From assembly GCA_916048095.2 (NCBI GenBank), contig OU696588.1, positions 4,107,501 through 4,171,500 of the forward strand: 64,000 nucleotides of DNA. The letters run 5' to 3'. Shown one piece after another: positions 1,020-39,623 of this stretch; positions within the stretch are counted from its first letter, which is position 1, and each line of letters starts with the position of its first letter. The notes beneath the pieces are model-generated. The model saw only the letters and a list, made by a program, of their open reading frames with translations. It ran no database searches and was not told the origin of the DNA. The DNA comes from Sacculina carcini (lineage: Eukaryota > Arthropoda > Thecostraca > Sacculinidae). The position numbers were made by a program, and so were the translations under genes.

Positions 1020-1055
<36 letters not shown>

Positions 1056-2153: not shown

Positions 2154-2313
2154 ATGACGCGCGACCAGGCTCCACAGAGTGCCGTGTGCAGTCTCAACGT
2201 TCAGTTGCCCAGTGAAATTTGTGCCGACGCGAGCGTGTCGGCTGACAGCGGTGACCTCTTGTGCACCTCGCTGGGACGTCTCACACCCGCCTCTCGCAGT
2301 CTCTTCCATATGG
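2154..2313 (+). CDS. ANK: Ankyrin exon: end of UPA domain and linker to death domain
   Basis: After the acceptor CAG at 2151-2153 (preceded by a GTT-repeat) the exon reads RDQAPQSAVCSLNVQLPSE, corresponding to the ankyrin UPA end (..LPQTAVC.LN..LP). It is followed by a Ser-rich, poorly conserved linker (GRLTPASRSLFHM). The best donor is GT at 2314, giving phase 1, which fits the next exon exactly. Confidence 0.88.
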
Positions 2314-4767: not shown

Positions 4768-4852
<85 letters not shown>

Positions 4853-13821: not shown

Positions 13822-14148
13822 GATTTGAGACACTCCAGGATGAACTTGCTCAAGGATCCAGCAGCACTGGACACGATGTCAAGTACTCCACCGAACAGAA
13901 GACAAGCAGGGCTGTGGTGACCCCTCGTGACCTCCCGGTCACAGGTCAGGTCACCGTTTCCGATCTCAGGTCATCCGAGGATGAATCACCAGTGGTGGCA
14001 TCCTCGGTGACCTCGGCTGCTGCAGCTGTTGACAATAGGCGCCAAGGAAACAAGCAGTTGGTTCTAGACGAACTTGGTGAGGCTCTGGTACGCATGGAGA
14101 AATCACAGCCTCCACTGTCTACTGCACTCACCAAAATGACGTCATCAG
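13822..14148 (+). CDS. ANK: Ankyrin exon: Ser/Thr/Val-rich linker after death domain
   Basis: The 109-codon exon in phase 1-1 begins FETLQDELAQGSSS and is low in hydrophobic core residues (SDLRSSEDESPVVASSVTSA). The acceptor is AG at 13820-13821 and the donor is GTTAAC at 14149. The frame is also open upstream to a second acceptor (CAG at 13723-13725) with a better pyrimidine tract and the same phase. That form would add 32 residues containing four cysteines. No domain is recognised. Confidence 0.7.
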
Positions 14149-15534: not shown

Positions 15535-15636
15535 ATACACGCGCAACGATACAACAACAAACAAGCGATACTTCTTCGAATTTCGAGTCTCAAAATGCTC
15601 CAGTTTCGACCACGATCACAACAACATCTCTTGAAG
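15535..15636 (+). CDS. Small ankyrin linker exon, Thr/Ser/Gln-rich
   Basis: A 34-codon phase 1-1 exon lies between acceptor CTTTTTAG (ending 15534, preceded by a (TG)n run) and donor GTGCCA at 15637. It reads TRATIQQQTSDTSSNFESQN and APVSTTITTTSLE. Composition resembles the neighbouring Ser/Thr-rich linkers. There is no known domain. Confidence 0.55.
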
Positions 15637-17164: not shown

Positions 17165-20100
17165 GTTTCTATTGGCGGCAGTATGTGGACGCGTCACCAG
17201 TGCCCAAACGTCGCCGACACCTCATTCGTCTTGCGACCACTTCTGCTCCCTCGGCCGACATTGAGTCCGATTTTGGTCCCCTAGTGACCCGTTACAAACA
17301 CGCTCATGCACTTTTGCCCTTTATTGATAGTTTTCCTGACGATTTTGACAATCCTTCATCCGCTCCCGTTGCCTCGGCGTCTTCAGCTTCGCAAACCAGT
17401 TCCTCTTCGGATGATTTTGATCAAATGGAACCTCGTCGTCGTAGAAAATTGAGAAAGAAGAAAATGTTAAGTTCGCGTGATTCTAGCAGTGCTAGTTCCT
17501 CAGAAGATGAAACGGGTGATACATCAGTATCGCCGTTTAAACGTATAAGGAATTTCTTCTATCGGTCCGTTTCTCCGCAGCATAGAGGTATACCTCAAGA
17601 AAAAGCTCCTTTGTCATCCAAGTCCGGTGGAAATCTCAAATTTCACAGTCATCCTGAAAATCAAGAGACCGGCAATGATAATTCAACAACTCCCGATGAC
17701 AGTGCATTTTCTAGACGTGCCCAGAACAACGGCGATGACGGTAATGACGAAGATGACAACAATGGTGAAAGTAAGCGCGATGGACAATGTTCAGATAATG
17801 ACAGTAGTTCTCACGAAAATGACACAAAGCAGGTGAACGGGAAACGACTGAGAACACCGAGCTCATCAGACTCGGAATGCGACTCTCACAGACTAAATGG
17901 AAAGTCCGCCTGTTCCTCCGAAGACGTACAAGAAATTATTGTGCCACTCGGAAGTGTTCTAGAAGTGCTGGATTTTACTGACGGCAGTCATCGACTGACT
18001 GTGAGCAGGGACATCAATGAGGAGGCTCGCCCTCATGTGTCCGATGAAGGGAAAATGCTGCGTGGTCAGGCGAACAAGCAACGACGAGTTTGGGTACACA
18101 GCGTTGACACGAAGGCCGATGTGTGGCTCACAGAAACTGGTGACTCGGCCACACAAACACTGGCAGATGGTACCGTCAAACATACGTACAGGCCGCACCG
18201 TGGATGGAGGCTCAAACTGACCGAAAATGATCCACAAACAGAGCAAAAGCTTGCTTTAAAAGAACACGACTTTATATCGAAACCAAAGTCGAAGACGTTT
18301 CTTGAAAGAGTGTTCAAGCGGAAGCATGGGGAATATGATGTAAATCCCGATTTGAGTGCATCTCTGAATTCGAAATTGAATATGCAACAGGTCAAGTCAG
18401 ATTACAATGAAATGAAACCTGTTCAAGAAGAGTCTATACGGCAGGATAACGTTGTCAACGTTCACAATATTTACAGAGCCAGAGAACCTAACCAGAAATC
18501 AAAAACTGATATAGGAAGATTGCTTTGTAGCCTTTGTCCCCCCAGACCAAATTTTTCTATTCCCAGCGATTCTGAAATAATAATATTGGATTATCCTGAT
18601 GGCAGGCGTGAACTGGTGGTGCGACAGAATCATACATTAGAATCGATATCAGAATCACACTTAGTTGACTCGTCCGTTCCACTGTCTCAGGTGGAGGGTG
18701 CCAATGTGGAATACTCCATTTTGCCTGATGGCACTAAGTCAACTTCATATGTGCCAAAAGAATCGTGGAATATGGACTTTGCTGCTATCGATTCCGGTGG
18801 AATAATCAACGGCGACAATATATTCTCCCCCGTAAATGGGAATCTTGTAGAGAGTGAATGGGTGGAAAGAAAACGATTTTGGATGTTGGCAAATAGCAAT
18901 AAGGTTGAGATATCTGACCTGGTCAAATCTCTGGTTCCTGAGGGTGGCATTCACATACCCAAGCGTGCATCCATACATGTGGTAAATAGGAAGGATGGTA
19001 GTAGATATATGATGGTTGTCAATGACATATCGAAAGTTAAGTGTCCCGTTATTCCCCCTGGCTCTAAATTGTGCAACATAGTCTATACCAATGGTGACGA
19101 ATGCAAGGTATGCGTTCAGAAAATAGCTTGTGATAATCAAGCTTTATTGAGGAATGTTAAAAAGGCCAAAGAGTATAATTCCTTATTACCTAACGGTGAT
19201 TCTAAAGTTGTGTACGTCCCAAAAACCAGGTGGAACTTTAATGTTTCAAGCAGTAGCTCTGAATCGTCGGGTGCTTCAGAGATTGAAAACGATGGTAAAG
19301 GGTTAAAAGGTACGACACGTTCTGATGGGGCACTTAATACTCGAGTGAAATTTGAAAAAGATATCTATGGTGGGCAGAAAGTATTTGACAAGCTAGAAGA
19401 GTTCTTGACTGAATTTCTCACTGAAAGCGATTGTCACAAAATCGTAATTGAAGATAACACCGAGATAGACATTATTGATGATACAGACAATGGAATACGC
19501 TATCTTATAGCAAGAAATCCTAGTGTAGACTCGAATGATAACTCTGACGGGATAGCAATTGATGAAGACAAACAAGAACTTCCAAAGAATGCCTTTAAGG
19601 TTGCATATGGTCATGATATTCCGATGTTACGGTCTGCTGACGTATTATGCTCAACAAACTCCAATGGAAGTCGAATTACTACATTGAGGCCAAAATTTGC
19701 TGGAGCATGGACTCAGGTGGACAGTCAGGACTTTTCTGTAAATAATTCCAATATTTCAGGCAAACATAAAAACCGTACACCTTCGAATGTGCCATTATTG
19801 CGGCTTCCTTCACATACATCTAAAGTTCATAGATTGAAAAATGTTGGAGATCTGCTCGTGGAATTAATTCCTCATGTAGATGTATCCGAGGTGTTCATGA
19901 ATAATTCATCTTTTATCGAGGTGATTGATAAGATAAATAGTGACACGAATCTCAGTGAGCGTGTTCTCAATATACATTCAATGGTCAAAATAGAGGCACC
20001 CAGTAATAACAACAGCATTACGGCAAGCACGGATAATCCATTGACATATCCTGGGATGAAAGTTATTAGTGATGGAGAAAACACTGAAGGCAGTGAAAAT

Positions 20101-23100
20101 TTGTGCTCTCAAAGTTTCATTGGAGACCCGAAATTTCAGTTGCCCGTTGTAGATCTCACTACCATGGAGGATATCTTATTAGAGGATGGTTCTAATAAAA
20201 GGATCTATCGACAGCAGCCCGGAAGTGATTGGTCTGGACAAATTGTAAAATTGATCGCAGGTAATCGTAAACTGTTAGCGAAAATGAGTGACAAAACGAA
20301 AATTCGGCATATGACACTGCCTGGTCGTCACGAGGCTCAAGCTGATTTAAAAGTTCATGATATTAAACTTCTGCTGAATGAACTCATTGACAGTACTTTA
20401 CATTCCAAGGTCGACCTTCGTAATAATTCCGAAGTACATATTATAGATTCGCCCCCAGAGTACAAAACAAGGCATGTAGAAATTGTGACAAATGTATCCG
20501 ATACTGCTGGGACGACTCTGGCTGATAATGTTGAAAGTAGGAGTGTTATAAGCCCTGTTGATATGTCAAAACAAGCCGTTGTTCAAGTGTATTGCGCCAA
20601 TCCAGATGTTAGCCTACCTCATCTAAAATCTGCCCTTGTTGAAGATTATTTAACTGACGATAAGAAAAAGAAAAGGGTTTATAGGCCAAAGGGGGGTCGT
20701 TGGTTTCCATCTCTGGATGTAAATACAGAAATTGACTTGGAAAATGGTTCATTAAGAATATATCCTAAGAGAGGAGGTTCATTGGACAGGTTACAACATA
20801 TTTCTATTGCTGAAAAGATACGTACATTCTTTGGTTTCACTCCTAAGCTTACGGTAACAAACGATAAGGAGCCTACTTCCCATTGTTCCTCTCGTAATGA
20901 GCATACTATTGAGGCTGAACAAATAAGGGATTGTGATGTTGTCAGCTTTAAAAGCGATTTGACCACTAGAAAGGTTTCTAGTAGTGCTGGCTCAGAAGAC
21001 GGAGAAAAGGAGATAAGATATGCCCGCGTAGATCACAAAGTAGGGATGGGGTTCTCTCGAAGAGAGGATGTAGGCAGTGATTCAATTGAAAGAAAAAACA
21101 GCTCAAAACCAACCGAAAGTTCATTAAACTGTAGTGTTGATTCTCAACCAGAAATGAAACGGCTGCTGAGTTTTAATCTGAAGAACTTACATAATATATT
21201 CAGAGATGGCCAGCGCGTTGATATACAACGTGGAACTAAATCTACCTTTGACGGATTGGACAGTTTGTTTTATCTTCTACCTGAGGCGGTTGTCAGTCAA
21301 CTGCGCGTAAATGACCAGACTGAAGTCACCGTAACAGACTCTCCAGATCTGAAGAATCGTCTGGTGTCATTCTCAACTAAGATACCTGAAGACCGATTGA
21401 ACAAGTTGCCCCCCGGCTTGAACGTGATCAAGATGACCGATAATGATGGTAATGTCACACATGTGCTCAAACAGGAATACAATTGTGATGTAGACACTGA
21501 CTTACAGATACCTCACGGTATTGTATTTGAGCGTTCTAGATTATCCGACGGATCCCATGAGAGCTCTTACAAACCGAAAAAGGGTCACGTCTGGTCGGCA
21601 ATTTATATGCCCATTTTTGACATTCCCGATTGGAAATTCCAGACCACTGCTAAGTCTTCTGAAAAGATTATAACACCTGATAAAATCGCACCCAGTCACA
21701 CGTTTGATTTGAAAATGCCATCGTTTTCATTTGGCAAAGGAGCAAAGTCGCCGAAGTTTGATGGGATTGACCGTATGCTCGAGTACCTACTTCCAGAATC
21801 CGATCTATCCAAGGTTCGTATCCGAGACAACACAGAGGTTGAAGTGGTTGATTTGCCAGATATGAAAGGACGACATATACTTGTGAAGACACCAGTTGAC
21901 AGCAATGAAACCGACACTTTGTCCTCTGAGCTTGATGTGGAGCGTGTGGAAATGCCCGACGGTTCCATTAAATGTGTGATCAATCAGAGGTTTGATGGCG
22001 ACGTGAATTTACCTCTGCCAAAATTGTCTGGTGCTGAAACTACTCATGCGAAACAAATTGACGGTTCAAAAAGAACCACACTTAAACCCAAATCAGGTTT
22101 CCGTTGGCCTTCTATTACCCTTCCTACATTTGACCTGCCCGACTGGAATTTCAAATCGGATGGTAATATTGATGCTAACGGTGGTGAGGGCATCGATGTC
22201 CAAGTCGTCAAACCGCTCTCATCAGCCACCATGAAATCTCCGAAGGCACCCAAGTTTGATGGTATAGACACAATGTTGGCATATTTTCTTTCTGAACCAG
22301 AAATGGCTACATTGCGTATTCGTGATGATACTGAGGTGGACGTTGTTGACAGTCCAAGTGATGGGTCACGCAAGGTGATTGTGAGAACGAATGTGCCGGA
22401 TAATCTGGTGACCAGTGTGCCGTCTGGATTTCAAGTGGCACAAGTCACACTGGAAGATGACAAGGTGAACAACATTCTCACTCAAACTTTCAACAGCGAC
22501 GTAAATTTGTCAATGCCAAAATTGACTGGTGCTGATATTGAACAAACGAATATGTATGATGACACGCAAAAAAACACTTTCAAGCCAAGAGTTGGATACA
22601 GTTGGCCCGAGCCTTGTCTGCCTACTCCTGATATAACAGACTGGAGATTTGGGCGTGAGAAACAATCTGACAGTTTACCGAGAAATGTTGAGAAGGATGA
22701 GCAACATCCCAATTTCGGTCTTAAATTGCCCTCACTCAGCTTTGGCAAGTCTGTTAAAGTACCTAAATTCGACGGCATTGACGCCTTCCTGAGACACCTG
22801 CTACCAGAGATCGATCTTGGTGAGATGTGTCTACGTGACAATTCCGAGATTGAATTGCTTGATCCGATCGATGCTACACGGCGAGAGATTGCCATTAAGA
22901 CTAGTTTGCCCGATGCAGACTCGAAAAACCTGCCTCGATCAGTGCATGTTGACGAGATGCATCAGTCTGATGGCGCAGTTAATAAAATTTTGACGCAGAC
23001 ATTCGACGGAGATGCCTGTATTGAAATTCCAAAACTATCGTGTGCAAATGTCAGCTCTGCTAAACTACCCGATGGATCGGTGAAAACATCAATCAAACCA

Positions 23101-26100
23101 AAAAATGGTCATAGGTGGCCTGACATTTCGCTACCGAATATTGGTATGCCTGAATTTCAGTTCAGATCGGGTGATAAGCCTGATGAAACTGACAGAAAGA
23201 TTGAAAGCGCTGATCATGACTTCAAATTTTCATTCAAAATGCCATCATTTTCACTATCCAGAGACCACAAATCTCCCAAGTTTGATAGCCTTGGTGCCAT
23301 GCTGAAACATTTGCTGCCTGAAACCGAGCTATGCAATTTACGCATCAAGGATAATACAGAAGTCACACTGATTGATTCGGCTGATCTGAAGAGTCGTCGG
23401 TTAACTCTGTCGACGGAACTTGCTGATAATGAACTGGAGAAGATATCCGGTAGTTTGAACATTGAGAAAATCACCGAGAATGATGGAAACGTTAGGTATG
23501 TACTCAAACAGGAATTTGACTGTGATGCAAACACCGGTGTACCCAGTCTTCACGGCGCTGTATTCGAACAAACTAAATTGCCCGATGGATCATTGAAAGC
23601 GTCTTATAAACCGAAAAAGGGTCATTTCTGGTCGTCAAAGGATTTACCAACACTTGACATTCCCGATTGGCAATTCCAGACGGATGTTAAATCTCCTGAA
23701 AAGGGTAAAATGTCCGATAAAGACGGACCAAATCATGGATTTGGTGTAAAAATACCATTGTTTTCATTTGGCAAAGGAGCAAAGTCGCCGAAGTTTGATG
23801 GGATTGACCGTATGCTCGAGTACCTACTACCAGAATCCGATCTATCCAAGGTTCGTATTCGAGACAACACAGAGGTTGAAGTGGTTGATTTGCCAGATAT
23901 GAAAGGACGACATATACTTGTGAAGACACCAGTTGACAGCAATGAAACCGACACTTTGTCCTCTGAGTTTGATGTGGAGCGTGTGGAAATGCCCGACGGT
24001 TCCATTAAATGTGTGATCAATCAGAGGTTTGATGGCGACGTGAATTTACCTTTACCAAAATTGTCTGGTGCTGAAACTACTCATGTGAAACAAATTGACG
24101 GTTCTAAAAGAACCACACTTAAACCCAAATCAGGCTTCCGTTGGCCTAATATTACCCTTCCTACATTTGACCTGCCCGACTGGAATTTCAAATCGGATGG
24201 TAATATTGATGCTAACGGTGGTGAGGGCATCGATGTCCAAGTCGTCAAACCGCTCTCATCAGCCACCATGAAATATCCGAAGGCACCCAAGTTTGATGGT
24301 ATAGACACAATGCTGGCATATTTTCTTTCTGAACCAGAAATGCCTACATTGCGTATTCGTGATGATACTGAGGTGGACGTTGTTGACAGTCCAAGTGATG
24401 GGTCACGCAAGGTGATTGTGAGAACGAATGTGCCGGATAATCTGGTGACCAGTGTGCCGTCTGGATTTCAAGTGGCACAAGTCACACTGGAAGATGACAA
24501 GGTGAACAACATTCTCACTCAAACTTTCAACAGCGACGTAAATTTGTCAATGCCAAAATTGACTGGTGCTGATATTGAACAAACGAATATGAATGATGAC
24601 ACGGAAAAAACCACTTTCAAGCCAAGAGTTGGATACAGTTGGCCCGAACCTTGTCTGCCTGCTCTTGATATAACAGACTGGAGATTTGGGCGTGAGAAAC
24701 AATCTGACAGTTTACCTAGAAATGTTGAGAAGGATGAGCAACATCCCAATTTCGGTCTTAAATTGCCTTCACTCAGCTTTGGCAAGTCTGTTAAAGTACC
24801 TAAATTCGACGGCATTGACGCCTTCCTGAGACACCTGCTACCAGAGAGCGATCTTGGTGAGATGTGTCTACGTGACAATTCCGAGATTGAATTGCTTGAT
24901 CCGATCGATGCTACACGGCGAGAGATTGCCATTAAGACTAGTTTGCCCGATGCAGACTCGAAAAACCTGCCTCGATCAGTGCATGTTGACGAGATGCATC
25001 AGTCTGATGGCGCAGTTAATAAACTTTTGACGCAGACATTCGACGGAGATGCCTGTATTGAAATTCCAAAACTATCGTGTGCAAATGTCAGCTCTGCTAA
25101 ACTACCCGATGGATCGGTGAAAACATCAATCAAACCAAAAAATGGTCATAGGTGGCCTGACATTTCGCTACCGAATATTGGTATGCCTGAATTTCAGTTC
25201 AGATCGGGTGATAAGCCTGATGAAACTGACAGAAAGATTGAAAGCGCTGATCATGACTTCAAATTTTCATTCAAAATGCCATCATTTTCACTATCCAGAG
25301 ACCACAAATCTCCCAAGTTTGATAGCCTTGGTGCCATGCTGAAACATTTGCTGCCTGAAACCGAGCTATGCAATTTACGCATCAAGGATAATACAGAAGT
25401 CACACTGATTGATTCGCCTGATTTGAAGAGTCGTCGGTTAACTCTGTCGACGGAATTTGCTGATAATGAACTGGAGAAGATACCCGGTAGTTTGAACATT
25501 GAGAAAATTTCCGAGAATGATGGAAACGTTAGACATGTACTCAAACAGGAATTTGACTGTGATGCAAACACCGGTGTACCGAGTCTTCACGGCGCTGTAT
25601 TCGAGCAAACTAAATTGCCTGATGGATCATTGAAAGCGTCTTATAAACCGAAAAAGGGTCATTTCTGGTCGTCGAAGGATTTACCAACGCTTGACATTCC
25701 CGATTGGCAATTCCAGACGGATAAAGACGGACCAAATCATGGATTTGGTGTAAAAATACCATCGTTTTCATTTGGCAAAGGAGCAAATTCGCCGAAGTTT
25801 GATGGGATTGACCGTATGCTCGAGTACCTACTTCCAGAATCCGATCTATCCAAGGCTCGTATCCGAGACAACACAGAGGTTGAAGTGGTTGATTTGCCAG
25901 ATATGAAAGGACGACATATACTTGTGAAGACACCAGTTGACAGCAATGAAACCGACACTTTGTCCTCTGAGTTTGATGTGGAGCGTGTGGAAATGCCCGA
26001 CGGTTCCATTAAATGTGTGATCAATCAGAGGTTTGATGGCGACGTGAATTTACCTTTACCAAAATTGTCTGGTGCTGAAACTACTCATGTGAAACAAATT

Positions 26101-29100
26101 GACGGTTCTAAAAGAACCACACTTAAACCCAAATCAGGCTTCCGTTGGCCTAATATTACCCTTCCTACATTTGACCTGCCCGACTGGAATTTCAAATCGG
26201 ATGGTAATATTGATGCTAACGGTGGTGAGGGCATCGATGTCCAAGTCGTCAAACCGCTCTCATCAGCCACCATGAAATCTCCGAAGGCACCCAAGTTTGA
26301 TGGTATAGACACAATGTTGGCATATTTTCTTTCTGAACCAGAAATGCCTACATTGCGTATTCGTGATGATACTGAGGTGGACGTTGTTGACAGTCCAAGT
26401 GATGGGTCACGCAAGGTGATTGTGAGAACGAATGTGCCGGATAATCTGGTGACCAGTGTGCCGTCTGGATTTCAAGTGGCACAAGTCACACTGGAAGATG
26501 ACAAGGTGAACAACATTCTCACTCAAACTTTCAACAGCGACGTAAATTTGTCAATGCCAAAATTGACTGGTGCTAATATTGAACAAACGAATATGAATGA
26601 TGACACGGAAAAAACCACTTTCAAGCCAAGAGTTGGATACAGTTGGCCCGAACCTTGTCTGCCTGCTCTTGATATAACAGACTGGAGATTTGGGCGTGAG
26701 AAACAATCTGACAGTTTACCTAGAAATGTTGAGAAGGATGAGCAACATCCCAATTTCGGTCTTAAATTGCCTTCACTCAGCTTTGGCAAGTCTGTTAAAG
26801 TACCTAAATTCGACGGCATTGACGCCTTCCTGAGACACCTGCTACCAGAGAGCGATCTTGGTGAGATGTGTCTACGTGACAATTCCGAGATTGAATTGCT
26901 TGATCCGATCGATGCTACACGGCGAGAGATTGCCATTAAGACTAGTTTGCCCGATGCAGACTCGAAAAACCTGCCTCGATCAGTGCATGTTGACGAGATG
27001 CATCAGTCTGATGGCGCAGTTAATAAAATTTTGACGCAGACATTCGACGGAGATGCCTGTATTGAAATTCCAAAACTATCGTGTGCAAATGTCAGCTCTG
27101 CTAAACTACCCGATGGATCGGTGAAAACATCAATCAAACCAAAAAATGGTCATAGGTGGCCTGACATTTCGCTACCGAATATTGGTATGCCTCAATTTCA
27201 GTTCAGATCGGGTGATAAGCCTGATGAAACTGACAGAAAGATTGAAAGCGCTGATCATGACTTCAAATTTTCATTCAAAATGCCATCATTTTCACTATCC
27301 AGAGACCACAAATCTCCCAAGTTTGATAGCCTTGGTGCCATGCTGAAACATTTGCTGCCTGAAACCGAGCTATGCAATTTACGCATCAAGGATAATACAG
27401 AAGTCACACTGATTGATTCGCCTGATTTGAAGAGTCGTCGGTTAACTCTGTCGACGGAATTTGCTGATAATGAACTGGAGAAGATACCCGGTAGTTTGAA
27501 CATTGAGAAAATTTCCGAGAATGATGGAAACGTTAGACATGTACTCAAACAGGAATTTGACTGTGATGCAAACACCGGTGTACCGAGTCTTCACGGCGCT
27601 GTATTCGAGCAAACTAAATTGCCTGATGGATCATTGAAAGCGTCTTATAAACCGAAAAAGGGTCATTTCTGGTCGTCAAAGGATTTACCAACGCTTGACA
27701 TTCCCGATTGGCAATTCCAGACGGATAAAGACGGACCAAATCATGGATTTGGTGTAAAAATACCATCGTTTTCATTTGGCAAAGGAGCAAAGTCGCCGAA
27801 GTTTGATGGGATTGACCGTATGCTCGAGTACCTACTTCCAGAATCCGATCTATCCAAGGCTCGTATCCGAGACAACACAGAGGTTGAAGTGGTTGATTTG
27901 CCAGATATGAAAGGACGACATATACTTGTGAAGACACCAGTTGACAGCAATGAAACCGACACTTTGTCCTCTGAGTTTGATGTGGAGCGTGTGGAAATGC
28001 CCGACGGTTCCATTAAATGTGTGATCAATCAGAGGTTTGATGGCGACGTGAATTTACCTTTACCAAAATTGTCTGGTGCTGAAACTACTCATGTGAAACA
28101 AATTGACGGTTCTAAAAGAACCACACTTAAACCCAAATCAGGCTTCCGTTGGCCTAATATTACCCTTCCTACATTTGACCTGCCCGACTGGAATTTCAAA
28201 TCGGATGGTAATATTGATGCTAACGGTGGTGAGGGCATCGATGTCCAAGTCGTCAAACCGCTCTCATCAGCCACCATGAAATCTCCGAAGGCACCCAAGT
28301 TTGATGGTATAGACACAATGTTGGCATATTTTCTTTCTGAACCAGAAATGCCTACATTGCGTATTCGTGATGATACTGAGGTGGACGTTGTTGACAGTCC
28401 AAGTGATGGGTCACGCAAGGTGATTGTGAGAACGAATGTACCGGATAATCTGGTGACCAGTGTGCCGTCTGGATTTCAAGTGGCACAAGTCACACTGGAA
28501 GATGACAAGGTGAACAACATTATCACTCAAACTTTCAACAGCGACGTAAATTTGTCAATGCCAAAATTGACTGGTGCTGATATTGAACAAGCGAATATGA
28601 ATGATGACACGCAAAAAACCACTTTCAAGCCAAGAGTTGGATACAGTTGGCCCGAACCTTGTCTGCCTGCTCTTGATATAACAGACTGGAGATTTAGGCG
28701 TGAGAAACAATCTGACAGTTTACCTAGAAATGTTGGGAAGGATGAGCAACATCCCAATTTCGGTCTTAAATTGCCTTCACTCAGCTTTGGCAAGTCCGTT
28801 AAAGTACCTAAATTCGACGGCATTGACGCCTTCCTGAGACACCTGCTACCAGAGATCGATCTTGGTGAGATGTGTCTACGTGAAAATTCCGAGATTGAAT
28901 TGCTTGATCCGATCGATGCTACACGGCGAGAGATTGCCATTAAGACTAGTTTGTCCGATGCAGACTCGAAAAACCTGCCTCAATCAGTGCATGTTGACGA
29001 GATGCATCAGTCTGATGGCGCAGTTAATAAAATTTTGACGCAGACATTCGACGGAGATGCCTGTATTGAAATTCCAAAACTATCGTGTGCAAATGTCAGC

Positions 29101-32100
29101 TCTGCTAAACTTCCCGATGGATCGGTGAAAACATCAATCAAACCAAAAAATGGTCATAGGTGGCCTGACATTTCGCTACCGAATATTGGTATGCCTGAAT
29201 TTCAGTTCAGATCGGGTGATAAGCCTGATGAAACTGACAGAAAGATTGAAAGCGCTGATCATGACTTCAAATTTTCATTCAAAATGCCATCATTTTCACT
29301 ATCCAGAGACCACAAATCTCCCAAGTTTGATAGCCTTGGTGCCATGCTGAAACATTTGCTGCCTGAAACCGAGCTATGCAATTTACGCATCAAGGATAAT
29401 ACAGAAGTCACACTGATTGATTCGCCTGATTTGAAGAGTCGTCGGTTAACTCTGTCGACGGAATTTGCTGATAATGAACTGGAGAAGATACCCGGTAGTT
29501 TGAACATTGAGAAAATTTCCGAGAATGATGGAAACGTTAGACATGTACTCAAACAGGAATTTGACTGTGATGCAAACACCGGTGTACCGAGTCTTCACGG
29601 CGCTGTATTCGAGCAAACTAAATTGCCCGATGGATCATTGAAAGCGTCTTATAAACCGAAAAAGGGTCATTTTTGGTCGTCAAAGGATTTACCAACACTT
29701 GACATTCCCGATTGGCAATTCCAGACGGATGTTAAATCTCCTGAAAAGAGTAAAATGTCCGATAAAGACGGACCAAATCATGGATTTGGAGTGAAAATAC
29801 CATCGTTTTCATTTGGCAAAGGAGCAAAGTCGCCGAAGTTTGATGGGATTGACCGTATGCTCGAGTACCTACTTCCAGAATCCGATCTATCCAAGGTTCG
29901 TATCCGAGACAACACAGAGGTTGAAGTGGTTGATTTGCCAGATATGAAAGGACGACATATACTTGTGAAGACACCAGTTGACAGCAATGAAACCGACACT
30001 TTGTCCTCTGAGTTTGATGTGGAGCATGTGGAAATGCCCGACGGTTCCATTAAATGTGTGATCAATCAGAGGTTTGATGGCGACGTGAATTTACCTTTAC
30101 CAAAATTGTCTGGTGCTGAAACTACTCATGTGAAACAAATTGACGGTTCTAAAAGAACCACACTTAAACCCAAATCAGGCTTCCGTTGGCCTAATATTAC
30201 CCTTCCTACATTTGACCTGCCCGACTGGAATTTCAAATCGGATGGTAATATTGATGCTAACGGTGGTGAGGGCATCGATGTCCAAGTCGTCAAACCGCTC
30301 TCATCAGCCACCATGAAATCTCCGAAGGCACCCAAGTTTGATGGTATAGACACAATGTTGGCATATTTTCTTTCTGAACCAGAAATGCCTACATTGCGTA
30401 TTCGTGATGATACTGAGGTGGACGTTGTTGACAGTCCAAGTGATGGGTCACGCAAGGTGATTGTGAGAACGAATGTACCGGATAATCTGGTGACCAGTGT
30501 GCCGTCTGGATTTCAAGTGGCACAAGTCACACTGGAAGATGACAAGGTGAACAACATTATCACTCAAACTTTCAACAGCGACGTAAATTTGTCAATGCCA
30601 AAATTGACTGGTGCTGATATTGAACAAGCGAATATGAATGATGACACGCAAAAAACCACTTTCAAGCCAAGAGTTGGATACAGTTGGCCCGAACCTTGTC
30701 TGCCTGCTCTTGATATAACAGACTGGAGATTTAGGCGTGAGAAACAATCTGACAGTTTACCTAGAAATGTTGGGAAGGATGAGCAACATCCCAATTTCGG
30801 TCTTAAATTGCCTTCACTCAGCTTTGGCAAGTCCGTTAAAGTACCTAAATTCGACGGCATTGACGCCTTCCTGAGACACCTGCTACCAGAGATCGATCTT
30901 GGTGAGATGTGTCTACGTGACAATTCCGAGATTGAATTGCTTGATCCGATCGATGCTACACGGCGAGAGATTGCCATTAAGACTAGTTTGTCCGATGCAG
31001 ACTCGAAAAACCTGCCTCAATCAGTGCATGTTGACGAGATGCATCAGTCTGATGGCGCAGTTAATAAAATTTTGACGCAGACATTCGACGGAGATGCCTG
31101 TATTGAAATTCCAAAACTATCGTGTGCAAATGTCAGCTCTGCTAAACTTCCCGATGGATCGGTGAAAACATCAATCAAACCAAAAAATGGTCATAGGTGG
31201 CCTGACATTTCGCTACCGAATATTGGTATGCCTGAATTTCAGTTCAGATCGGGTGATAAGCCTGATGAAACTGACAGAAAGATTGAAAGCGCTGATCATG
31301 ACTTCAAATTTTCATTCAAAATGCCATCATTTTCACTATCCAGAGACCACAAATCTCCCAAGTTTGATAGCCTTGGTGCCATGCTGAAACATTTGCTGCC
31401 TGAAACCGAGCTATGCAATTTACGCATCAAGGATAATACAGAAGTCACACTGATTGATTCGCCTGATTTGAAGAGTCGTCGGTTAACTCTGTCGACGGAA
31501 TTTGCTGATAATGAACTGGAGAAGATACCCGGTAGTTTGAACATTGAGAAAATTTCCGAGAATGATGGAAACGTTAGACATGTACTCAAACAGGAATTTG
31601 ACTGTGATGCAAACACCGGTGTACCGAGTCTTCACGGCGCTGTATTCGAGCAAACTAAATTGCCCGATGGATCATTGAAAGCGTCTTATAAACCGAAAAA
31701 GGGTCATTTTTGGTCGTCAAAGGATTTACCAACACTTGACATTCCCGATTGGCAATTCCAGACGGATGTTAAATCTCCTGAAAAGAGTAAAATGTCCGAT
31801 AAAGACGGACCAAATCATGGATTTGGAGTGAAAATACCATCGTTTTCATTTGGCAAAGGAGCAAAGTCGCCGAAGTTTGATGGGATTGACCGTATGCTCG
31901 AGTACCTACTTCCAGAATCCGATCTATCCAAGGTTCGTATCCGAGACAACACAGAGGTTGAAGTGGTTGATTTGCCAGATATGAAAGGACGACATATACT
32001 TGTGAAGACACCAGTTGACAGCAATGAAACCGACACTTTGTCCTCTGAGTTTGATGTGGAGCATGTGGAAATGCCCGACGGTTCCATTAAATGTGTGATC

Positions 32101-35100
32101 AATCAGAGGTTTGATGGCGACGTGAATTTACCTCTGCCAAAATTGTCTGGTGCTGAAACTACTCATGCGAAACAAATTGACGGTTCAAAAAGAACCACAC
32201 TTAAACCCAAATCAGGTTTCCGTTGGCCTTCTATTACCCTTCCTACATTTGACCTGCCCGACTGGAATTTCAAATCGGATGGTAATATTGATGCTAACGG
32301 TGGTGATGGCATCGATGTCCAAGTCGTCAAACCGCTCTCATCAGCCACCATGAAATCTCCGAAGGCACCCAAGTTTGATGGTATAGACACAATGTTGGCA
32401 TATTTTCTTTCTGAACCAGAAATGGCTACATTGCGTATTCGTGATGATACTGAGGTGGACGTTGTTGACAGTCCAAGTGATGGGTCACGCAAGGTGATTG
32501 TGAGAACGAATGTGCCGGATAATCTGGTGACCAGTGTGCCGTCTGGATTTCAAGTGGCACAAGTCACACTGGAAGATGACAAGGTGAACAACATTCTCAC
32601 TCAAACTTTCAACAGCGACGTAAATTTGTCAATGCCAAAATTGACTGGTGCTGATATTGAACAAACGAATATGAATGATGACACGCAAAAACCACTTTCA
32701 AGCCAAGAGTTGGATACAGTTGGCCCGAACCTTGTCTGCCTACTCCTGATATAACAGACTGGAGATTTGGGCGTGAGAAACAATCTGACAGTTTACCGAG
32801 AAATGTTGAGAAGGATGAGCAACATCCCAATTTCGGTCTTAAATTGCCTTCACTCAGCTTTGGCAAGTCTGTTAAAGTACCTAAATTCGACGGCATTGAC
32901 GCCTTCCTGAGACACCTGCTACCAGAGATCGATCTTGGTGAGATGTGTCTACGTGACAATTCCGAGATTGAATTGCTTGATCCGATCGATGCTACACGGC
33001 GAGAGATTGCCATTAAGACTAGTTTGTCCGATGCAGACTCGAAAAACCTGCCTCAATCAGTGCATGTTGACGAGATGCATCAGTCTGATGGCGCAGTTAA
33101 TAAAATTTTGACGCAGACATTCGACGGAGATGCCTGTATTGAAATTCCAAAACTATCGTGTGCAAATATCAGCTCTGCTAAACTACCCGATGGATCGGTG
33201 AAAACATCAATCAAACCAAAAAATGGTCATAGGTGGCCTGATATTTCGCTACCGAATATAGGTATGCCTGAATTTCAGTTCAGATCGGGTGATAAGCCTG
33301 ATGAAACTGACAGAAAGATTGAAAGCGCTGATCATGACTTCAAATTTTCATTCAAAATGCCATCATTTTCACTATCCAGAGACCACAAATCTCCCAAGTT
33401 TGATAGCCTTGGTGCCATGCTGAAACATTTGCTGCCTGAAACCGAGCTATGCAATTTACGCATCAAGGATAATACAGAAGTCACACTGATTGATTCGCCT
33501 GATTTGAAGAGTCGTCGGTTAACTCTGTCGACGGAATTTGCTTATAATGAACTGGAGAAGATACCCGGTAGTTTGAACATTGAGAAAATTTCCGAGAATG
33601 ATGGAAACGTTAGACATGTACTCAAACAGGAATTTGACTGTGATGCAAACACCGGTGTACCGAGTCTTCACGGCGCTGTATTCGAGCAAACTAAATTGCC
33701 CGATGGATCATTGAAAGCGTCTTATAAACCGAAAAAGGGTCATTTCTGGTCGTCAAAGGATTTACCAACACTTGACATTCCCGATTGGCAATTCCAGACG
33801 GATGTTAAATCTCCTGAAAAGAGTAAAATGTCCGATAAAGACGGACCAAATCATGGATTTGGAGTGAAAATACCATCGTTTTCATTTGGCAAAGGAGCAA
33901 AGTCGCCGAAGTTTGATGGGATTGACCGTATGCTCGAGTACCTACTTCCAGAATCCGATCTATCCAAGGTTCGTATCCGAGACAACACAGAGGTTGAAGT
34001 GGTTGATTTGCCAGATATGAAAGGACGACATATACTTGTGAAGACACCAGTTGACAGCAATGAAACCGACACTTTGTCCTCTGAGTTTGATGTGGAGCAT
34101 GTGGAAATGCCCGACGGTTCCATTAAATGTGTGATCAATCAGAGGTTTGATGGCGACGTGAATTTACCTCTGCCAAAAGTGTCTGGTGCTGAAACTACTC
34201 ATGCGAAACAAATTGACGGTTCAAAAAGAACCACACTTAAACCCAAATCAGGTTTCCGTTGGCCTTCTATTACCCTTCCTACATTTGACCTGCCCGACTG
34301 GAATTTCAAATCGGATGGTAATATTGATGCTAACGGTGGTGATGGCATCGATGTCCAAGTCGTCAAACCGCTCTCATCAGCCACCATGAAATCTCCGAAG
34401 GCACCCAAGTTTGATGGTATAGACACAATGTTGGCATATTTTCTTTCTGAACCAGAAATGGCTACATTGCGTATTCGTGATGATACTGAGGTGGACGTTG
34501 TTGACAGTCCAAGTGATGGGTCACGCAAGGTGATTGTGAGAACGAATGTGCCGGATAATCTGGTGACCAGTGTGCCGTCTGGATTTCAAGTGGCACAAGT
34601 CACACTGGAAGATGACAAGGTGAACAACATTCTCACTCAAACTTTCAACAGCGACGTAAATTTGTCAATGCCAAAATTGACTGGTGCTGATATTGAACAA
34701 ACGAATATGAATGATGACACGCAAAAAACCACTTTCAAGCCAAGAGTTGGATACAGTTGGCCCGAACCTTGTCTGCCTACTCCTGATATAACAGACTGGA
34801 GATTTGGGCGTGAGAAACAATCTGACAGTTTACCGAGAAATGTTGAGAAGGATGAGCAACATCCCAATTTCGGTCTTAAATTGCCTTCACTCAGCTTTGG
34901 CAAGTCTGTTAAAGTACCTAAATTCGACGGCATTGACGCCTTCCTGAGACACCTGCTACCAGAGATCGATCTTGGTGAGATGTGTCTACGTGACAATTCC
35001 GAGATTGAATTGCTTGATCCGATCGATGCTACACGGCGAGAGATTGCCATTAAGACTAGTTTGTCCGATGCAGACTCGAAAAACCTGCCTCAATCAGTGC

Positions 35101-38100
35101 ATGTTGACGAGATGCATCAGTCTGATGGCGCAGTTAATAAAATTTTGACGCAGACATTCGACGGAGATGCCTGTATTGAAATTCCAAAACTATCGTGTGC
35201 AAATATCAGCTCTGCTAAACTACCCGATGGATCGGTGAAAACATCAATCAAACCAAAAAATGGTCATAGGTGGCCTGATATTTCGCTACCGAATATAGGT
35301 ATGCCTGAATTTCAGTTCAGATCGGGTGATAAGCCTGATGAAACTGACAGAAAGATTGAAAGCGCTGATCATGACTTCAAATTTTCATTCAAAATGCCAT
35401 CATTTTCACTATCCAGAGACCACAAATCTCCCAAGTTTGATAGCCTTGGTGCCATGCTGAAACATTTGCTGCCTGAAACCGAGCTATGCAATTTACGCAT
35501 CAAGGATAATACAGAAGTCACACTGATTGATTCGCCTGATTTGAAGAGTCGTCGGTTAACTCTGTCGACGGAATTTGCTGATAATGAACTGGAGAAGATA
35601 CCCGGTAGTTTGAACATTGAGAAAATTTCCGAGAATGATGGAAACGTTAGACATGTACTCAAACAGGAATTTGACTGTGATGCAAACACCGGTGTACCGA
35701 GTCTTCACGGCGCTGTATTCGAGCAAACTAAATTGCCCGATGGATCATTGAAAGCGTCTTATAAACCGAAAAAGGGTCATTTCTGGTCGTCAAAGGATTT
35801 ACCAACACTTGACATTCCCGATTGGCAATTCCAGACGGATGTTAAATCTCCTGAAAAGAGTAAAATGTCCGATAAAGACGGACCAAATCATGGATTTGGA
35901 GTGAAAATACCATCGTTTTCATTTGGCAAAGGAGCAAAGTCGCCGAAGTTTGATGGGATTGACCGTATGCTCGAGTACCTACTTCCAGAATCCGATCTAT
36001 CCAAGGTTCGTATCCGAGACAACACAGAGGTTGAAGTGGTTGATTTGCCAGATATGAAAGGACGACATATACTTGTGAAGACACCAGTTGACAGCAATGA
36101 AACCGACACTTTGTCCTCTGAGTTTGATGTGGAGCATGTGGAAATGCCCGACGGTTCCATTAAATGTGTGATCAATCAGAGGTTTGATGGCGACGTGAAT
36201 TTACCTCTGCCAAAAGTGTCTGGTGCTGAAACTACTCATGCGAAACAAATTGACGGTTCAAAAAGAACCACACTTAAACCCAAATCAGGTTTCCGTTGGC
36301 CTTCTATTACCCTTCCTACATTTGACCTGCCCGACTGGAATTTCAAATCGGATGGTAATATTGATGCTAACGGTGGTGATGGCATCGATGTCCAAGTCGT
36401 CAAACCGCTCTCATCAGCCACCATGAAATCTCCGAAGGCACCCAAGTTTGATGGTATAGACACAATGTTGGCATATTTTCTTTCTGAACCAGAAATGGCT
36501 ACATTGCGTATTCGTGATGATACTGAGGTGGACGTTGTTGACAGTCCAAGTGATGGGTCACGCAAGGTGATTGTGAGAACGAATGTGCCGGATAATCTGG
36601 TGACCAGTGTGCCGTCTGGATTTCAAGTGGCACAAGTCACACTGGAAGATGCCAAGGTGAACAACATTCTCACTCAAACATTCAACAGCGACGTAAATTT
36701 GTCAATGCCAAAATTGACTGGTGCTGATATTGAACAAACGAATATGAATGATGACACGCAAAAAACCACTTTCAAGCCAAGAGTTGGATACAGTTGGCCC
36801 GAACCTTGTCTGCCTACTCCTGATATAACAGACTGGAGATTTGGGCGCGATAAACAATCTGACAGTTTACCGAGAAATGTTGAGAAGGATGAGCAACATC
36901 CTAATTTCCGTCTTAAATTGCCTTCACTCAGCTTCGGAAAGTCTGTTAAAGTACCTAAATTCGACGGTATTGACGCCTTCCTGAGACACTTGCTACCAGA
37001 GAGCGATTTTGGTGAGATGTGTCTACGTGACAATTCCGAGATTGAATTGCTTGATCGGATCGATGCTAAACGGCGAGAGATTGCCATTAAGACTAGTTTG
37101 CCCGATGCAGACTCGAAAAACCTGCCTCAATCAGTGCATGTTGACGAGATGCATCAGTCTGATGGCACAGTTAATACAATTTTGACGCAGACATTCGACG
37201 GAGATGCCTGTATTGAAATTCCAAAACTATCGTGTGCAAATGTCAGCTCTGCTAAACTACCCGATGGATCGGTGAAAACATCTATCAAACCAAAAAATGG
37301 CCATAGATGGCCAGATGTATCACTGCCGAATATTGGTATGCCTGATTGGCAATTTGGTTCGGACAACAATCCCAGTCAATGTGAAACGTCAGAAAAACTT
37401 GGTAATCAATCGCCACAACCTAAATTTCATATGAGTTCGAAACTGTCTTCATTTGGTAGTTTTGGTGATTTTTTGGCCGGAATCATTCCCAAAAGGTCTC
37501 ATTCCAAGGTTGTTATCAAGCGAAATTCAGTAGTTGAAATTGAATCGGCTCCTGATGGTTGTCGAAGACTTGTCGTGTCAACAGATCTTTCTAACTCACC
37601 GGCTAAACTTTCTCCCAATTCTGCTATTGAAATCGAGGATCATCCTTCTGGAAATAAGAAGATTTGGAAACAGTATTTTGACATTGATGCTAATGTTGAT
37701 ATTCCGTGCTTTGACGATACCATTACCACCGATGTGTTTCTTCCAGATGGTACACATAAAAGAGTATTTGCTCCGAAGACTAATTGGTCCGATATAACTT
37801 TTCCAGATTTTGATATGTCTAGTGTCGATTGTTTAGATTCACCTAAACTTTGTGAATCAATAGAACCAAAACCTTTTCCTGAAAAATTATCCGGCTTGAA
37901 ATTCCCGCCTAGTCATGAGATGCCGTATTCAATACTATCGAATATGGTATCAAAAGGTGACATGGCCAAAATTGTTTTCCATGATGACTCGATAATTGAA
38001 TTGATAGAGTATCCTGATCTGTCCAGAAAGGTTGCGATTGCCACGCTAATTACAGAGGATAGCATTCACGTTGTTCCGAGACTGGAAAATATATCAGATA

Positions 38101-39426
38101 ATCGTCCCGAAGGTGAGCGACGAATATGGACGCAGTTCTTTGACGTAGAGGAAAATTACGTTTTACCGGATTTTGATACGGTTGATATTCTCGATGTAAT
38201 CCTCTCCGACGGTACGAAAAAATCTGTTCTTAAACCCAGAGAGGGGTTTTCTTGGTCTAAAAAAGATATTGAACGTCCGTGCGGTATGGGTGACACTGAG
38301 GTTGTGACTAACTATAACGAGTCAAATTGTGCCAGCTCACCAACTAATTTTGAGCGTTACAAAGAAGATATTCTACCCGACGGAACAAAAGTCCGTTGTG
38401 TTTTACGACAACGCGTAAAGTCCGCCGAGACCTACGAATCGCCAAATGGTAACTGCATCGTCTACGAAAAAACATCTCCTGACGGCATCAATCGGAGAAT
38501 CGTGAAACGCACTGTGTTTACTTCATCACGGCCATGTGCTGATAGCGGAAATACCGCCGTTACTACAGAGCTATTATCTGATGGATCGTTAAGGAGAGTT
38601 GTTCAAGAGCATTTCGAGTTCCCTTCGTGCGTGGGTGTGGAGGATTCGAAACCGGTAAATATGTGTGGTAACGCTAGTGAGGAACAGGAATCACGCAAGA
38701 TAATACGGCACCGTGTGGTAAAAATGCCTACTATAGATATTGACGCAGAAGATGAGACATCGGCCATTTTAAGCAATGATGAGTGTAGTCCAGATGGTTC
38801 TATTCGTAGGGTTATTCGGAGGCGCATTGTTCGCAATGTTACAGATATTGATATGGACAATCTTCCTGATGGGTGTGTTGTTGAGGAACAGAGTATGCCT
38901 GATGGAAACACCGTTACGGTTGTGAAGAGACGCACTGTACGCACTGTCGTTACTTCCGATATAAGTAGTGTTCCTAGAGGTCTAGAAGTTATCGATCGAA
39001 CTGGCTGTGACGGTCATCTATACAGAACAATTCGACAACCTTACAACTCATCTGAACCGATTCCTGAGGGTGCCAAGCTGGTTGAGGTATCTGGAAACCA
39101 GATGATTCAATGGGACGTTGAGGACAACAATATTCCTTCCTCTCTTTCAAATATCCTACTGCTTCCCGGTATTCACGAAAATTGTGTCTCGTCTTCCGTT
39201 AATGCCCAAGTATCCCATGGACATTCCATCCCTTCTGCCGAGGCGCCAGCAACGTGTCATCGTCATGTCGAAGGGATTAGTGCTGATCCTAATCCGAGCT
39301 GTCACTTTGAATCCTCGCCCGATGAAACATCAAATGATTCTCATTTTGGACACGTTTCTAATGAATCATCTCGCAACTCTGAAGATTGCAGCATCCAGCG
39401 GTCTGTGAGGCGTCCATTACGACAAG
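17165..39426 (+). CDS. ANK: Giant ankyrin exon, about 7,421 codons, built from ~40 repeat units
   Basis: One uninterrupted exon (acceptor GTGTAG ending 17164, donor GTAGTT at 39427, phase 1 at both ends) encodes the giant insert. Order by nucleotide: an acidic Ser-rich start with a basic cluster RRRRKLRKKK (17165-17920); about seven diverged units (17930-21700); the nearly identical four-unit higher-order repeat (21733 to about 37330); two diverged units (to about 38280); six short PDG/RR repeats (38366-39050); and a Ser-rich end. A typical unit has PKFDGID, then LLPE, RIRDNTEVEVVD, MPDGSIKCVI, FDGDVNLPLPKLSGA, LKPKSGFRWP and PDW. It looks beta-rich with DG turns and matches no domain I know. 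The exon length is one base short of a multiple of three because of a deletion near 32690, after which a stop appears at 32752-32754. The frame reopens at once and continues to the donor. The role is presumably as a long cytoskeletal spacer or scaffold, as in other giant ankyrins (inference). Confidence 0.88.
17930..21700 (+). repeat. Seven diverged copies of the giant-exon repeat unit, N-terminal side
   Basis: The end motif of the unit (aromatic + P-K-x-x-W) recurs in changed form: YRPHRGW (about 18184), YVPKESW (about 18748), YVPKTRW (about 19210), LRPKFAGAW (about 19684), YRQQPGSDW (about 20205), YRPKGGRW (about 20680) and YKPKKGHVW (about 21569). Each is preceded by motifs of the E(V/I)..(V/I)D type. 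The last one (21240-21660) is clearly a D-type unit and sits directly before A1, so the D-A-B-C order already existed at this border. Confidence 0.75.
21733..37330 (+). repeat. Coding higher-order tandem repeat, ~2,037-bp period, about 8 copies
   Basis: The anchor GGCAAAGGAGC occurs at 21733, 23770, 25774, 27778, 29815, 31852, 33888 and 35925. Spacings are therefore 2037, 2004, 2004, 2037, 2037, 2036 and 2037. Each period holds four ~170-residue units: A (GIDRMLEYLLPESDLSKV), B (GIDTMLAYFLSEPEM), C (GIDAFLRHLLPE.DLGEM) and D (SLGAMLKHLLPETELCNL). The 2004 spacings come from loss of 33 bp in the linker after D in copies 2 and 3. The 2036 comes from the single-base deletion in copy 6. The last copy has A, B and a diverged C, and then leaves the pattern. 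Confidence 0.95.
32687..32691 (+). other. Single-base deletion in an A-run disrupting the giant frame
   Basis: At this site five A follow GC, whereas the same place in copies 4, 5, 7 and 8 has six A (for example 34723-34728). The loss shifts the frame and brings a stop at 32752-32754. The frame of all other repeats resumes directly afterwards and stays open for another 6.7 kb to the donor. The exon length modulo 3 fits exactly one missing base. A sequencing or assembly error in a homopolymer is the simplest reading; a true allele is possible. Confidence 0.85.
37400..38280 (+). repeat. Two diverged copies of the giant-exon repeat unit, C-terminal side
   Basis: After the last C-type unit the sequence reads FGDFLAGIIPKRSHSKVVIK with RNSVVEIESAPDG and ends in FAPKTNWSDITFPDFDM. 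A second unit follows, with PYSILSNMVSKGDMAKIVF and ending LKPREGFSW. Spacing and motif order follow the repeat unit but sequence identity is low. Confidence 0.75.
38366..39050 (+). repeat. Short PDG/RR repeats in the giant exon
   Basis: Within about 230 residues the pattern x-P/S-D-G-x-x-x-R-R/x-V-x-R occurs repeatedly: DILPDGTKVRCVLRQRV, SPDGINRRIVKRTV, LSDGSLRRVVQEHF, SPDGSIRRVIRRRIVR, MPDGNTVTVVKRRTVRTV and GCDGHLYRTIRQPY. They resemble isolated DG hairpins of the large unit but with Arg-rich strands. The region is strongly basic, unlike the acidic exon that follows. Confidence 0.75.

Positions 39427-39574: not shown

Positions 39575-39578
<4 letters not shown>

Positions 39579-39623
<45 letters not shown>

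What the first reader, a model, noticed from the sequence alone, without database searches (positions are those of the whole stretch)
17165..39426. A 22-kb coding exon: one of the largest ankyrin giant exons, with a repeat unit of unknown fold
Upstream exons are unmistakably ankyrin ZU5/UPA/death domain, and matching phase-1 junctions lead into one open exon of about 7,421 codons. Giant exons are known in vertebrate Ank2/Ank3, Drosophila Ank2 and nematode unc-44. Here, however, the exon consists of about 40 copies of a ~170-residue, apparently beta-rich unit (PKFDGID..LLPE..IRDNTEVEVVD..PDG..LKPK.G.RWP..PDW). I do not recognise it as any described domain or as homologous to the other giant exons. 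It could be an independently evolved elastic or spacer module of the axonal cytoskeleton.
Basis: partly seen in the sequence, partly recalled or inferred. Interest (0 to 1): 0.92.

Follow-up and report, generated by a model that had tools for sequence, protein, structure and literature searches.

The report
Barnacle giant ankyrin with folded beads
A barnacle-like crustacean carries a nerve-skeleton gene (ankyrin) with a 22-kilobase exon that seems to encode a string of about 38 small folded beads, of a kind otherwise met here only in barnacle proteins, where giant ankyrins elsewhere are described as Ser/Glu-rich.

Summary
An ankyrin gene runs through the window. A 22,262-bp exon (17165-39426), phase 1 at both ends, lies after the death-domain exons and before an exon homologous to an Artemia ankyrin tail. 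It is not one open frame: a 1-base deletion in an A-run (32687-32691; 7 of 8 sister copies have six A) splits it, probably an assembly error. It holds about 38 units of ~170 aa, 31 of them (8 A, 8 B, 8 C, 7 D) in ~2,037-bp ABCD blocks, 97.9-99.9% identical except the last. No unit scanned had a convincing Pfam match in the copy held, and none matched the PDB by sequence. The unit is 44-45% identical to a Pollicipes 'AHNAK-like' protein and two unnamed ones. AlphaFold2 predicts a helix plus three beta-hairpins (pLDDT 84.7) and, in tandem, two beads with a low-confidence linker. Two hairpins and a 37-aa tail repeat are mutually homologous; the third hairpin is weaker. Best reading: a folded-bead spacer in a giant ankyrin. 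Splicing and function are inferred.

The parts
152..1567 (+). ankyrin exons covering the ZU5 end and UPA domain (152-321, 568-703, 1385-1567); 152 is where reading was begun, the acceptor lies slightly upstream
   Evidence: GT-AG exons; UPA_2 E=1.7e-50; 67-96% identity to barnacle ankyrins exon by exon
2154..2250 (+). exon between UPA and death domain
   Evidence: 50% identity
3244..12581 (+). death-domain exons 3244-3333, 4640-4753, 12453-12581 (all phase 1-1)
   Evidence: Death E=3.1e-18; homologous in barnacle ankyrins; exon 12453 matched in 111 of 120 best-hit ankyrins at E<1e-3
13822..14148 (+). post-death-domain ankyrin exon, phase 1-1
   Evidence: 42% identity to Amphibalanus ankyrin-3-like over 69 columns, E=3e-11 in a 120-protein set
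15535..15636 (+). ankyrin exon directly upstream of the giant exon, phase 1-1
   Evidence: 47% identity to Amphibalanus ankyrin-3-like over 32 columns, E=8e-4 in a 120-protein set, the only one of 120 below 1e-3; phase-1 donor
17165..39426 (+). giant exon, 22,262 bp, phase 1 at both ends, split by a one-base frameshift
17165..17907 (+). Ser-rich/basic N-terminal stretch before the first unit hit
   Evidence: first unit hit starts at 17908
17908..20742 (+). degenerate N-terminal units (7 hits, 4.1-65.4 bits, two of them overlapping)
   Evidence: unit HMM
21214..37454 (+). main array: one single unit, then seven full A-B-C-D blocks of 2,004-2,037 bp and a last A-B-C
   Evidence: unit HMM; block alignment, first seven 97.9-99.9% identical, last 92-93.5% to the others
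32687..32691 (+). 5-A run where 7 of 8 sister copies have 6 A: frameshift, most likely an assembly error
37416..38321 (+). two divergent C-terminal units; the second has a C-terminal unit of P0003 as nearest neighbour
   Evidence: 68.6 and 66.6 bits; tree
38361..39149 (+). C-terminal hairpin motifs (PDG...RRR), counterpart of the 37-aa tandem repeat of P0002
   Evidence: two hits over 10 bits, E=1.5e-17 (a copy that is in the profile) and 2.4e-9; exon end aligns to the end of P0002, E=3.5e-60
39853..44229 (+). next ankyrin exon, 4,377 bp, phase 1-1, Ser/Glu-rich (27.6% S+E)
   Evidence: 41.7% identity over 252 columns to Artemia ankyrin-2-like, E=1e-34; 7 of 120 ankyrins at E<1e-3, the further rows seen being 19-22% and perhaps partly compositional; composition

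Best explanation
This is the giant exon of an ankyrin gene of a barnacle-like (thecostracan) crustacean. It is a cassette with phase 1 at both ends, placed after the death domain. Including it adds about 7,400 residues, mainly about 38 small independently folded domains (one helix region and three beta-hairpins each) joined by flexible linkers. The membrane- and spectrin-binding head and the Ser/Glu-rich tail encoded by the next exon would thereby be held far apart by a long, compliant string of beads: a spacer in the axonal cytoskeleton. The domain grew from a ~36-residue strand-PDG turn-strand hairpin, copied into a ~170-residue unit. Units were then multiplied and homogenised in four-unit blocks, probably separately in this lineage. 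Shown: gene context, splice phases, unit homology to barnacle proteins, homology of two hairpins and the tail repeat, purifying selection among copies, confident predicted fold, low-confidence linker. Inferred: splicing into ankyrin mRNA, neuronal use, spacer role, third hairpin, separate expansion.
For: Ankyrin repeats, ZU5, UPA and DD exons match two barnacle ankyrins in order on one strand, apart from cross-matches among the repeats themselves. Exons on both sides of the giant exon match other ankyrins. Exons from 3244 on are phase 1-1. In this genome the unit is found only here (36 of 36 matches), and in the protein collection only in P0001-P0003. P0003 and the Pollicipes ankyrin P0005 are both listed with a contig of 28,334,671 bases. 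P0001-P0003 all begin inside a unit, as truncated gene models would. Single-unit model: pLDDT 84.7, pTM 0.77. Two-unit model: both beads mostly above 80, linker 141-176 below 50, pTM 0.45. dN/dS 0.30-0.53. Ser-Pro is denser in the stretches between folded parts (25 in 1,203 residues) than in them (13 in 3,528).
Against: No transcript or proteomic data. The assembled exon is frameshifted. The Pollicipes array is catalogued as a separate gene. No joined ankyrin-plus-array protein was found; by the tool's length rule one search covered about 2,860-9,110 aa and about 4,255-13,540 aa, where only the 673 candidates sharing most words were scored. The match of the exon just upstream is short (32 columns). 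Models rest on 31 and 13 sequences and no coordinates could be inspected. No function is tested; 'neuronal' comes from other species.
Confidence: 0.66

Rival explanations
1. The array is a separate AHNAK-like gene lying inside an ankyrin intron, with its own promoter; the splice-phase match is accidental.
For: Public annotation of Pollicipes names the homologue 'AHNAK-like', a gene of its own.
Against: Both ends have splice sites in the phase shared by the neighbouring exons. The exon lies between two ankyrin exons. P0001-P0003 start in the middle of a unit. Protostome giant exons are known at this place (PMC5135030, sections 8 and 9 read).
Confidence: 0.08
2. The exon is real but no longer makes the full giant protein: the one-base deletion is genuine in this individual, ending the protein about 5,195 residues into the exon.
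For: The deletion is in the assembled sequence; its block differs from the next one by only 2 of 2,036 bases, so a genuine deletion could be very young.
Against: Homopolymer length errors are common in assemblies (recalled); the frame downstream stays open for 2,259 codons, over the phase-1 donor.
Confidence: 0.1
3. The beads are binding platforms (for microtubules, channels or signalling proteins) rather than spacer; length is a by-product of repeat turnover.
For: Some unit residues are invariant (T61, Q93, P127 in 31 sequences) and dN/dS is below 1. Only part of the Drosophila XL array is needed for axon diameter, according to PMC5135030.
Against: Near-identical tandem blocks and a probable separate array expansion (core-unit clade with low support 0.52) suggest copy number matters more than individual sites. 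No binding motif was tested.
Confidence: 0.3
4. The array is mis-sized by assembly: the true number of 2,037-bp blocks is smaller or larger.
For: Blocks 3/4 and 5/6 (counted from 0) differ by 3 of 2,037 and 2 of 2,036 bases.
Against: The other pairs among the first seven blocks differ by 10-42 bases; three related proteins have 34-42 units over 20 bits.
Confidence: 0.2

Closest known systems
[quoted passage not shown] elegans UNC-44), as surveyed in PMC5135030
   Same: Ankyrin repeats-ZU5-UPA-DD gene; very long exon after the death domain, reported there as broadly found in protostomes; a second large Ser/Glu-rich exon, as Drosophila has two.
   Different: Unit of ~510 bp against 36-228 bp reported there; 15.9% Ser+Glu against about 25% reported; predicted folded domains.
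Drosophila Ank2-XL array (93 repeats of 76 aa, postulated molecular spacer; described in PMC5135030)
   Same: Similar size (93 x 76 aa is about 21 kb) in an ankyrin long exon downstream of the death domain.
   Different: Unit length ~170 aa. Sequence homology not tested: no fly XL sequence was obtained. That 76 is about twice the 37 aa of the tail hairpin repeat is only a lead.
Pollicipes pollicipes 'neuroblast differentiation-associated protein AHNAK-like' (P0003) and unnamed P0001, P0002
   Same: Same unit, 44-45% identity; same end of the exon (P0002, E=3.5e-60); 34-42 units each over 20 bits.
   Different: Catalogued as stand-alone proteins; a 37-aa RRR hairpin is expanded in P0002 but gives two hits over 10 bits in the window.
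TCP10_C / CPAP G-box (PF07202)
   Same: Short strand-PDG-turn-strand motif (G-box structure recalled); weak matches in 5 of 31 units, best E 0.0028, and in pieces.
   Different: At best 18.7 bits against a cut-off of 36 in the calls that gave bits; no G-box chain among the fold matches shown.

Membership tests
Giant ankyrin gene | Ankyrin repeats, ZU5, UPA and death domain in order on one strand | tested here: met
Giant ankyrin gene | Kilobase-long coding exon within the gene, flanked by ankyrin exons in matching phase | tested here: met
Giant ankyrin gene | Uninterrupted open reading frame through the long exon | tested here: inconclusive
   One-base break at 32687-32691; two open frames of 5,206 and 2,259 codons
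Giant ankyrin gene | Long exon joined to the ankyrin mRNA | not testable with these tools
   No transcripts held
Ser/Glu-rich giant-exon polypeptide type (in PMC5135030 a shared, not the defining, property of giant ankyrins) | Ser+Glu about 25%, S/E/T/D/K/P above 55% | tested here: not met
   Giant exon 15.9% and 46.5%; the next exon 27.6% and 49.1%, so it meets the first figure only
AHNAK family | AHNAK central repeat (recalled) | not tested
   Only the NCBI name of P0003 suggests it; no AHNAK sequence was compared
PF28549 (Pfam model newer than the copy held; name unknown to me) | Match to the model | not testable with these tools
   Precomputed on P0002 and P0003, not on P0001; not in the library here
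TCP10_C (PF07202) | Score over Pfam gathering cut-off (36 bits) | tested here: not met
   10.6 bits (window), 14.1 and 18.7 bits (pieces of P0003 and P0002)
TCP10_C (PF07202) | G-box fold | tested here: inconclusive
   Not among the 50 rows shown
Rab3-GAP_cat_C (PF19533), precomputed on P0001-P0003 | Match to the model in single units | tested here: not met
   2 of 31 units at E<=1, best 0.15; no match in this genome, but the control rang nowhere either
Drosophila Ank2-XL repeat | 76-aa repeat homology | not tested
   No fly XL sequence obtained; protein searches exhausted

The most novel reading that the evidence does not exclude
A previously undescribed protein domain (helix plus three beta-hairpins), built by triplication of a ~36-residue PDG hairpin, which may itself derive from a strand-turn-strand motif in the ankyrin tail. 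Barnacles multiplied it into a titin-like chain of dozens of folded beads inside a giant ankyrin. That would make it, as far as my searches saw, the first giant-ankyrin insert predicted to be folded, and an independent solution to spacing membrane from microtubules.
Probability: 0.38. Interest if true: 0.78.

Novelty: new variant of a known kind. Interest (0 to 1): 0.61.

Why it matters
Giant-ankyrin inserts are described as fast-evolving, Ser/Glu-rich and without detectable homology between the phyla compared (PMC5135030, sections 8 and 9 read). This one is predicted to be a chain of folded domains, ~45% identical between this genome and barnacle proteins. A single recombinant unit is small enough to crystallise or to pull with optical tweezers. 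That makes the question 'what does a giant ankyrin's enormous insert do mechanically?' directly testable. It also suggests that a catalogued 'AHNAK-like' gene is the missing giant exon of barnacle ankyrin.

Tried and rejected
Known domains: DUF6823 reached 38.9 bits on the 2,259-aa frame against a cut-off of 25, but with 0 stretches significant on their own; it was absent from a single unit and from the families listed for 31 units. I reject it as chance summed over near-identical copies. PF19533, precomputed on P0001-P0003, is Rab3-GAP_cat_C: 2 of 31 units, best E 0.15. PF22780, PF03789 and PF08368, precomputed on P0003, were not followed up. PF28549, precomputed on P0002 and P0003, is not in the library held and in no paper held: open, and I lowered two odds slightly for it. 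FtsH_ext (E 0.0015 in 1 of 31 units) and Tcp10_C (5 of 31, best 0.0028) stay below cut-off where bits were given, or without further support.

Origin of the hairpin from the ankyrin tail: the 37-aa repeat HMM gave no significant hit in 120 ankyrins (best E 1.2), phmmer with an Amphibalanus motif passed the inclusion threshold only for itself, and a regular expression matched 5 of 120. Kept as speculation. Only the best 120 of 6,655 ankyrin hits were available for such tests.

Hairpin triplication: h1-h3 (scores 12.4 and 13.0) and h1-tail (15.1) do not clearly exceed permuted controls (maxima 15.5, 12.7, 14.2). h1-h2 (21.5-22.5 against maxima 13.2-13.7) does; for h2-h3 one control reached 26.1 against 29.8 observed (30 permutations each).

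Tree: besides the last unit, the other divergent edge units (four N-terminal, one C-terminal) all have P0002_636-797 as nearest leaf at distances 1.85-3.19, which says little.

Taxon: inferred from the closest ankyrins, Amphibalanus (52%) and Pollicipes (63%); a rhizocephalan is my guess only; a paper search for Sacculina settled nothing.

Literature: the listings show no title that I recognise as describing a crustacean giant ankyrin or this repeat; the listed papers were not read, except PMC5135030 (abstract, sections 8 and 9, passages) and PMC6703079 (passages).
Full report
OBSERVATION. The window is C23:4,107,501-4,171,500 of a 264.4-Mb, 43-contig genome. On the plus strand two overlapping open frames span the finding: 17134-32754 (5,206 codons) and 32682-39461 (2,259 codons). 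The claimed exon, 17165-39426, has AG before and GT after it and is 22,262 bp, one base short of 7,421 codons. The frame changes at a run of five A (32687-32691) where 7 of 8 sister copies have six. In an alignment of the eight block copies this is the only gap not divisible by three. I take it for an assembly error, without proof.

GENE CONTEXT. Spliced window exons give UPA_2 (E=1.7e-50) and Death (E=3.1e-18). I fetched 44 kb, mostly upstream, and aligned two barnacle ankyrins (Amphibalanus P0004, Pollicipes P0005) by tblastn. Ankyrin repeats, ZU5, UPA and death-domain exons match in order on the same strand from C23:4,065,556 to window position about 14,117, apart from cross-matches among the ankyrin repeats. 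Exons 13822-14148 and 15535-15636 match the Amphibalanus ankyrin (E=3e-11 and 8e-4). Exon 39853-44229 matches the ankyrin tail of Artemia (41.7% over 252 columns, E=1e-34); 7 of 120 ankyrins pass E<1e-3, but the other rows seen are 19-22% identical over long Ser-rich stretches and may be partly compositional. These E-values are for a set of 120 proteins, without composition correction. The giant exon thus lies between two ankyrin exons, after the death domain, where PMC5135030 finds long exons broadly in protostomes (sections read). Exons from 3244 on are phase 1-1, so they could be skipped or included without breaking the frame (the giant one given its missing base). The first and last coding exons were not identified.

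THE UNIT. A profile built from 102 distinct units finds 27 hits over 20 bits in the first frame and 12 in the second, one unit being cut by the frameshift: 38. Seven further hits are weaker. It finds 42, 40 and 34 over 20 bits in P0001, P0002 and P0003. The seed included these same proteins, so the counts describe them and do not test homology; homology rests on the independent search (44-45% identity over 99-100% of the query). P0001 and P0002 come without organism names; P0003 is Pollicipes. In the collection of 5.8 billion proteins, within the tool's length limits, the unit hit only these three (3 of 4,877 candidates; 3 of 673 scored, the query included). In its own genome it was found only here (36 of 36 matches). 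In 120 best-hit ankyrins (arthropod or unnamed) it gave no significant hit (best E 0.15).

REPEAT HISTORY. By order the array holds 8 A, 8 B, 8 C and 7 D units. Anchors of type A are spaced 2,037, 2,004, 2,004, 2,037, 2,037, 2,036 and 2,037 bp. The first seven blocks are 97.9-99.9% identical; blocks 5/6 and 3/4 (counted from 0) differ by only 2 and 3 bases; the last block is 92-93.5% identical to the others. In the 7 pairs computed dN/dS is 0.30-0.53. In a midpoint-rooted tree of 138 distinct units, 26 core window units form a clade without barnacle units (support only 0.52), and the last window unit is nearest a C-terminal unit of P0003; the other divergent edge units are too distant to place. 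The end of the exon aligns with the end of P0002 (35% over 460 columns, E=3.5e-60). So the 3' edge looks orthologous and the core probably expanded separately.

UNIT WITHIN THE UNIT. I cut the unit into three slightly overlapping pieces of 40, 42 and 44 columns (h1, h2, h3) and compared profiles with the 37-aa tail repeat (mostly P0002, one window copy). Tail-h2 96% probability, tail-h3 94%, h2-h3 91-92%, h1-h2 62-69%; h1-h3 and h1-tail are not clearly above permuted controls. The AlphaFold2 model of one unit (31 sequences, pLDDT 84.7, pTM 0.77) has a helix and strands 43-48/55-63, 76-81/87-97 and 109-115/121-127, three hairpins at these three pieces. A two-unit model (13 sequences, pLDDT 73.6, pTM 0.45) repeats the pattern twice with a linker 141-176 below pLDDT 50. 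The drop in pTM with two confident halves is what flexibly joined beads give, but could also reflect the thin alignment.

COMPARISON. None of 31 units scanned had a convincing match in the Pfam copy held (best E 0.0015, FtsH_ext in one unit; Tcp10_C in 5, best 0.0028). DUF6823 passes its cut-off only on the whole repeated frame, with no single stretch significant. A newer model, PF28549, is precomputed on P0002 and P0003 and could not be examined. No PDB chain matches by sequence, and no fold match is convincing. Composition departs from the Ser/Glu-rich giant exons (15.9% against about 25%), while the following exon has 27.6% (PMC5135030 section 9). The fly XL array, 93 repeats of 76 aa, is about as long; so 'one of the largest' is fair against the mean of 8,103 bp given there, 'the largest' is not shown.

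MECHANISM. [quoted passage not shown] By analogy the barnacle array would hold the membrane-bound head and the tail apart. Ser-Pro is denser between the folded parts (25 in 1,203 residues) than within them (13 in 3,528) in the stretches counted; such sites could be phosphorylated (recalled) and might tune spacing. This step is inference.

VERDICT. A real, well-placed ankyrin giant exon of known kind, carrying an apparently folded repeat domain shared with barnacle proteins: a new variant of a known kind.

Noticed in passing
window 59017-59550, minus strand: 178-aa open frame with a reverse transcriptase match (RVT_1, E=2.2e-9): piece of a retroelement.
   Followed up: partly
window 63248-63826, minus strand: 193-aa open frame with no Pfam match at E<=0.01; looks like a retroelement C-terminus (recalled impression).
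   Followed up: no
G000:C23:3,918,528-3,951,928, minus strand (outside the window): A second cluster of ankyrin-repeat matches and a ZU5 match on the opposite strand, ending about 114 kb before the first exon match of this gene: possibly a second ankyrin gene.
   Followed up: no
window 100-131, 3144-3240, 4600-4638, 4755-4990, 39578-39680 and elsewhere: Introns hold many TG/TC/TA microsatellites, several close to splice acceptors.
   Followed up: no
P0002 residues about 6,836-7,250: Eleven nearly identical PDG...RRR hairpin repeats at 37-residue spacing, expanded in that protein but with only two hits over 10 bits in the window.
   Followed up: partly
window 14540-14740: Open stretch with an AG acceptor but no clear phase-1 donor; possible alternative exon left out of the model.
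   Followed up: no
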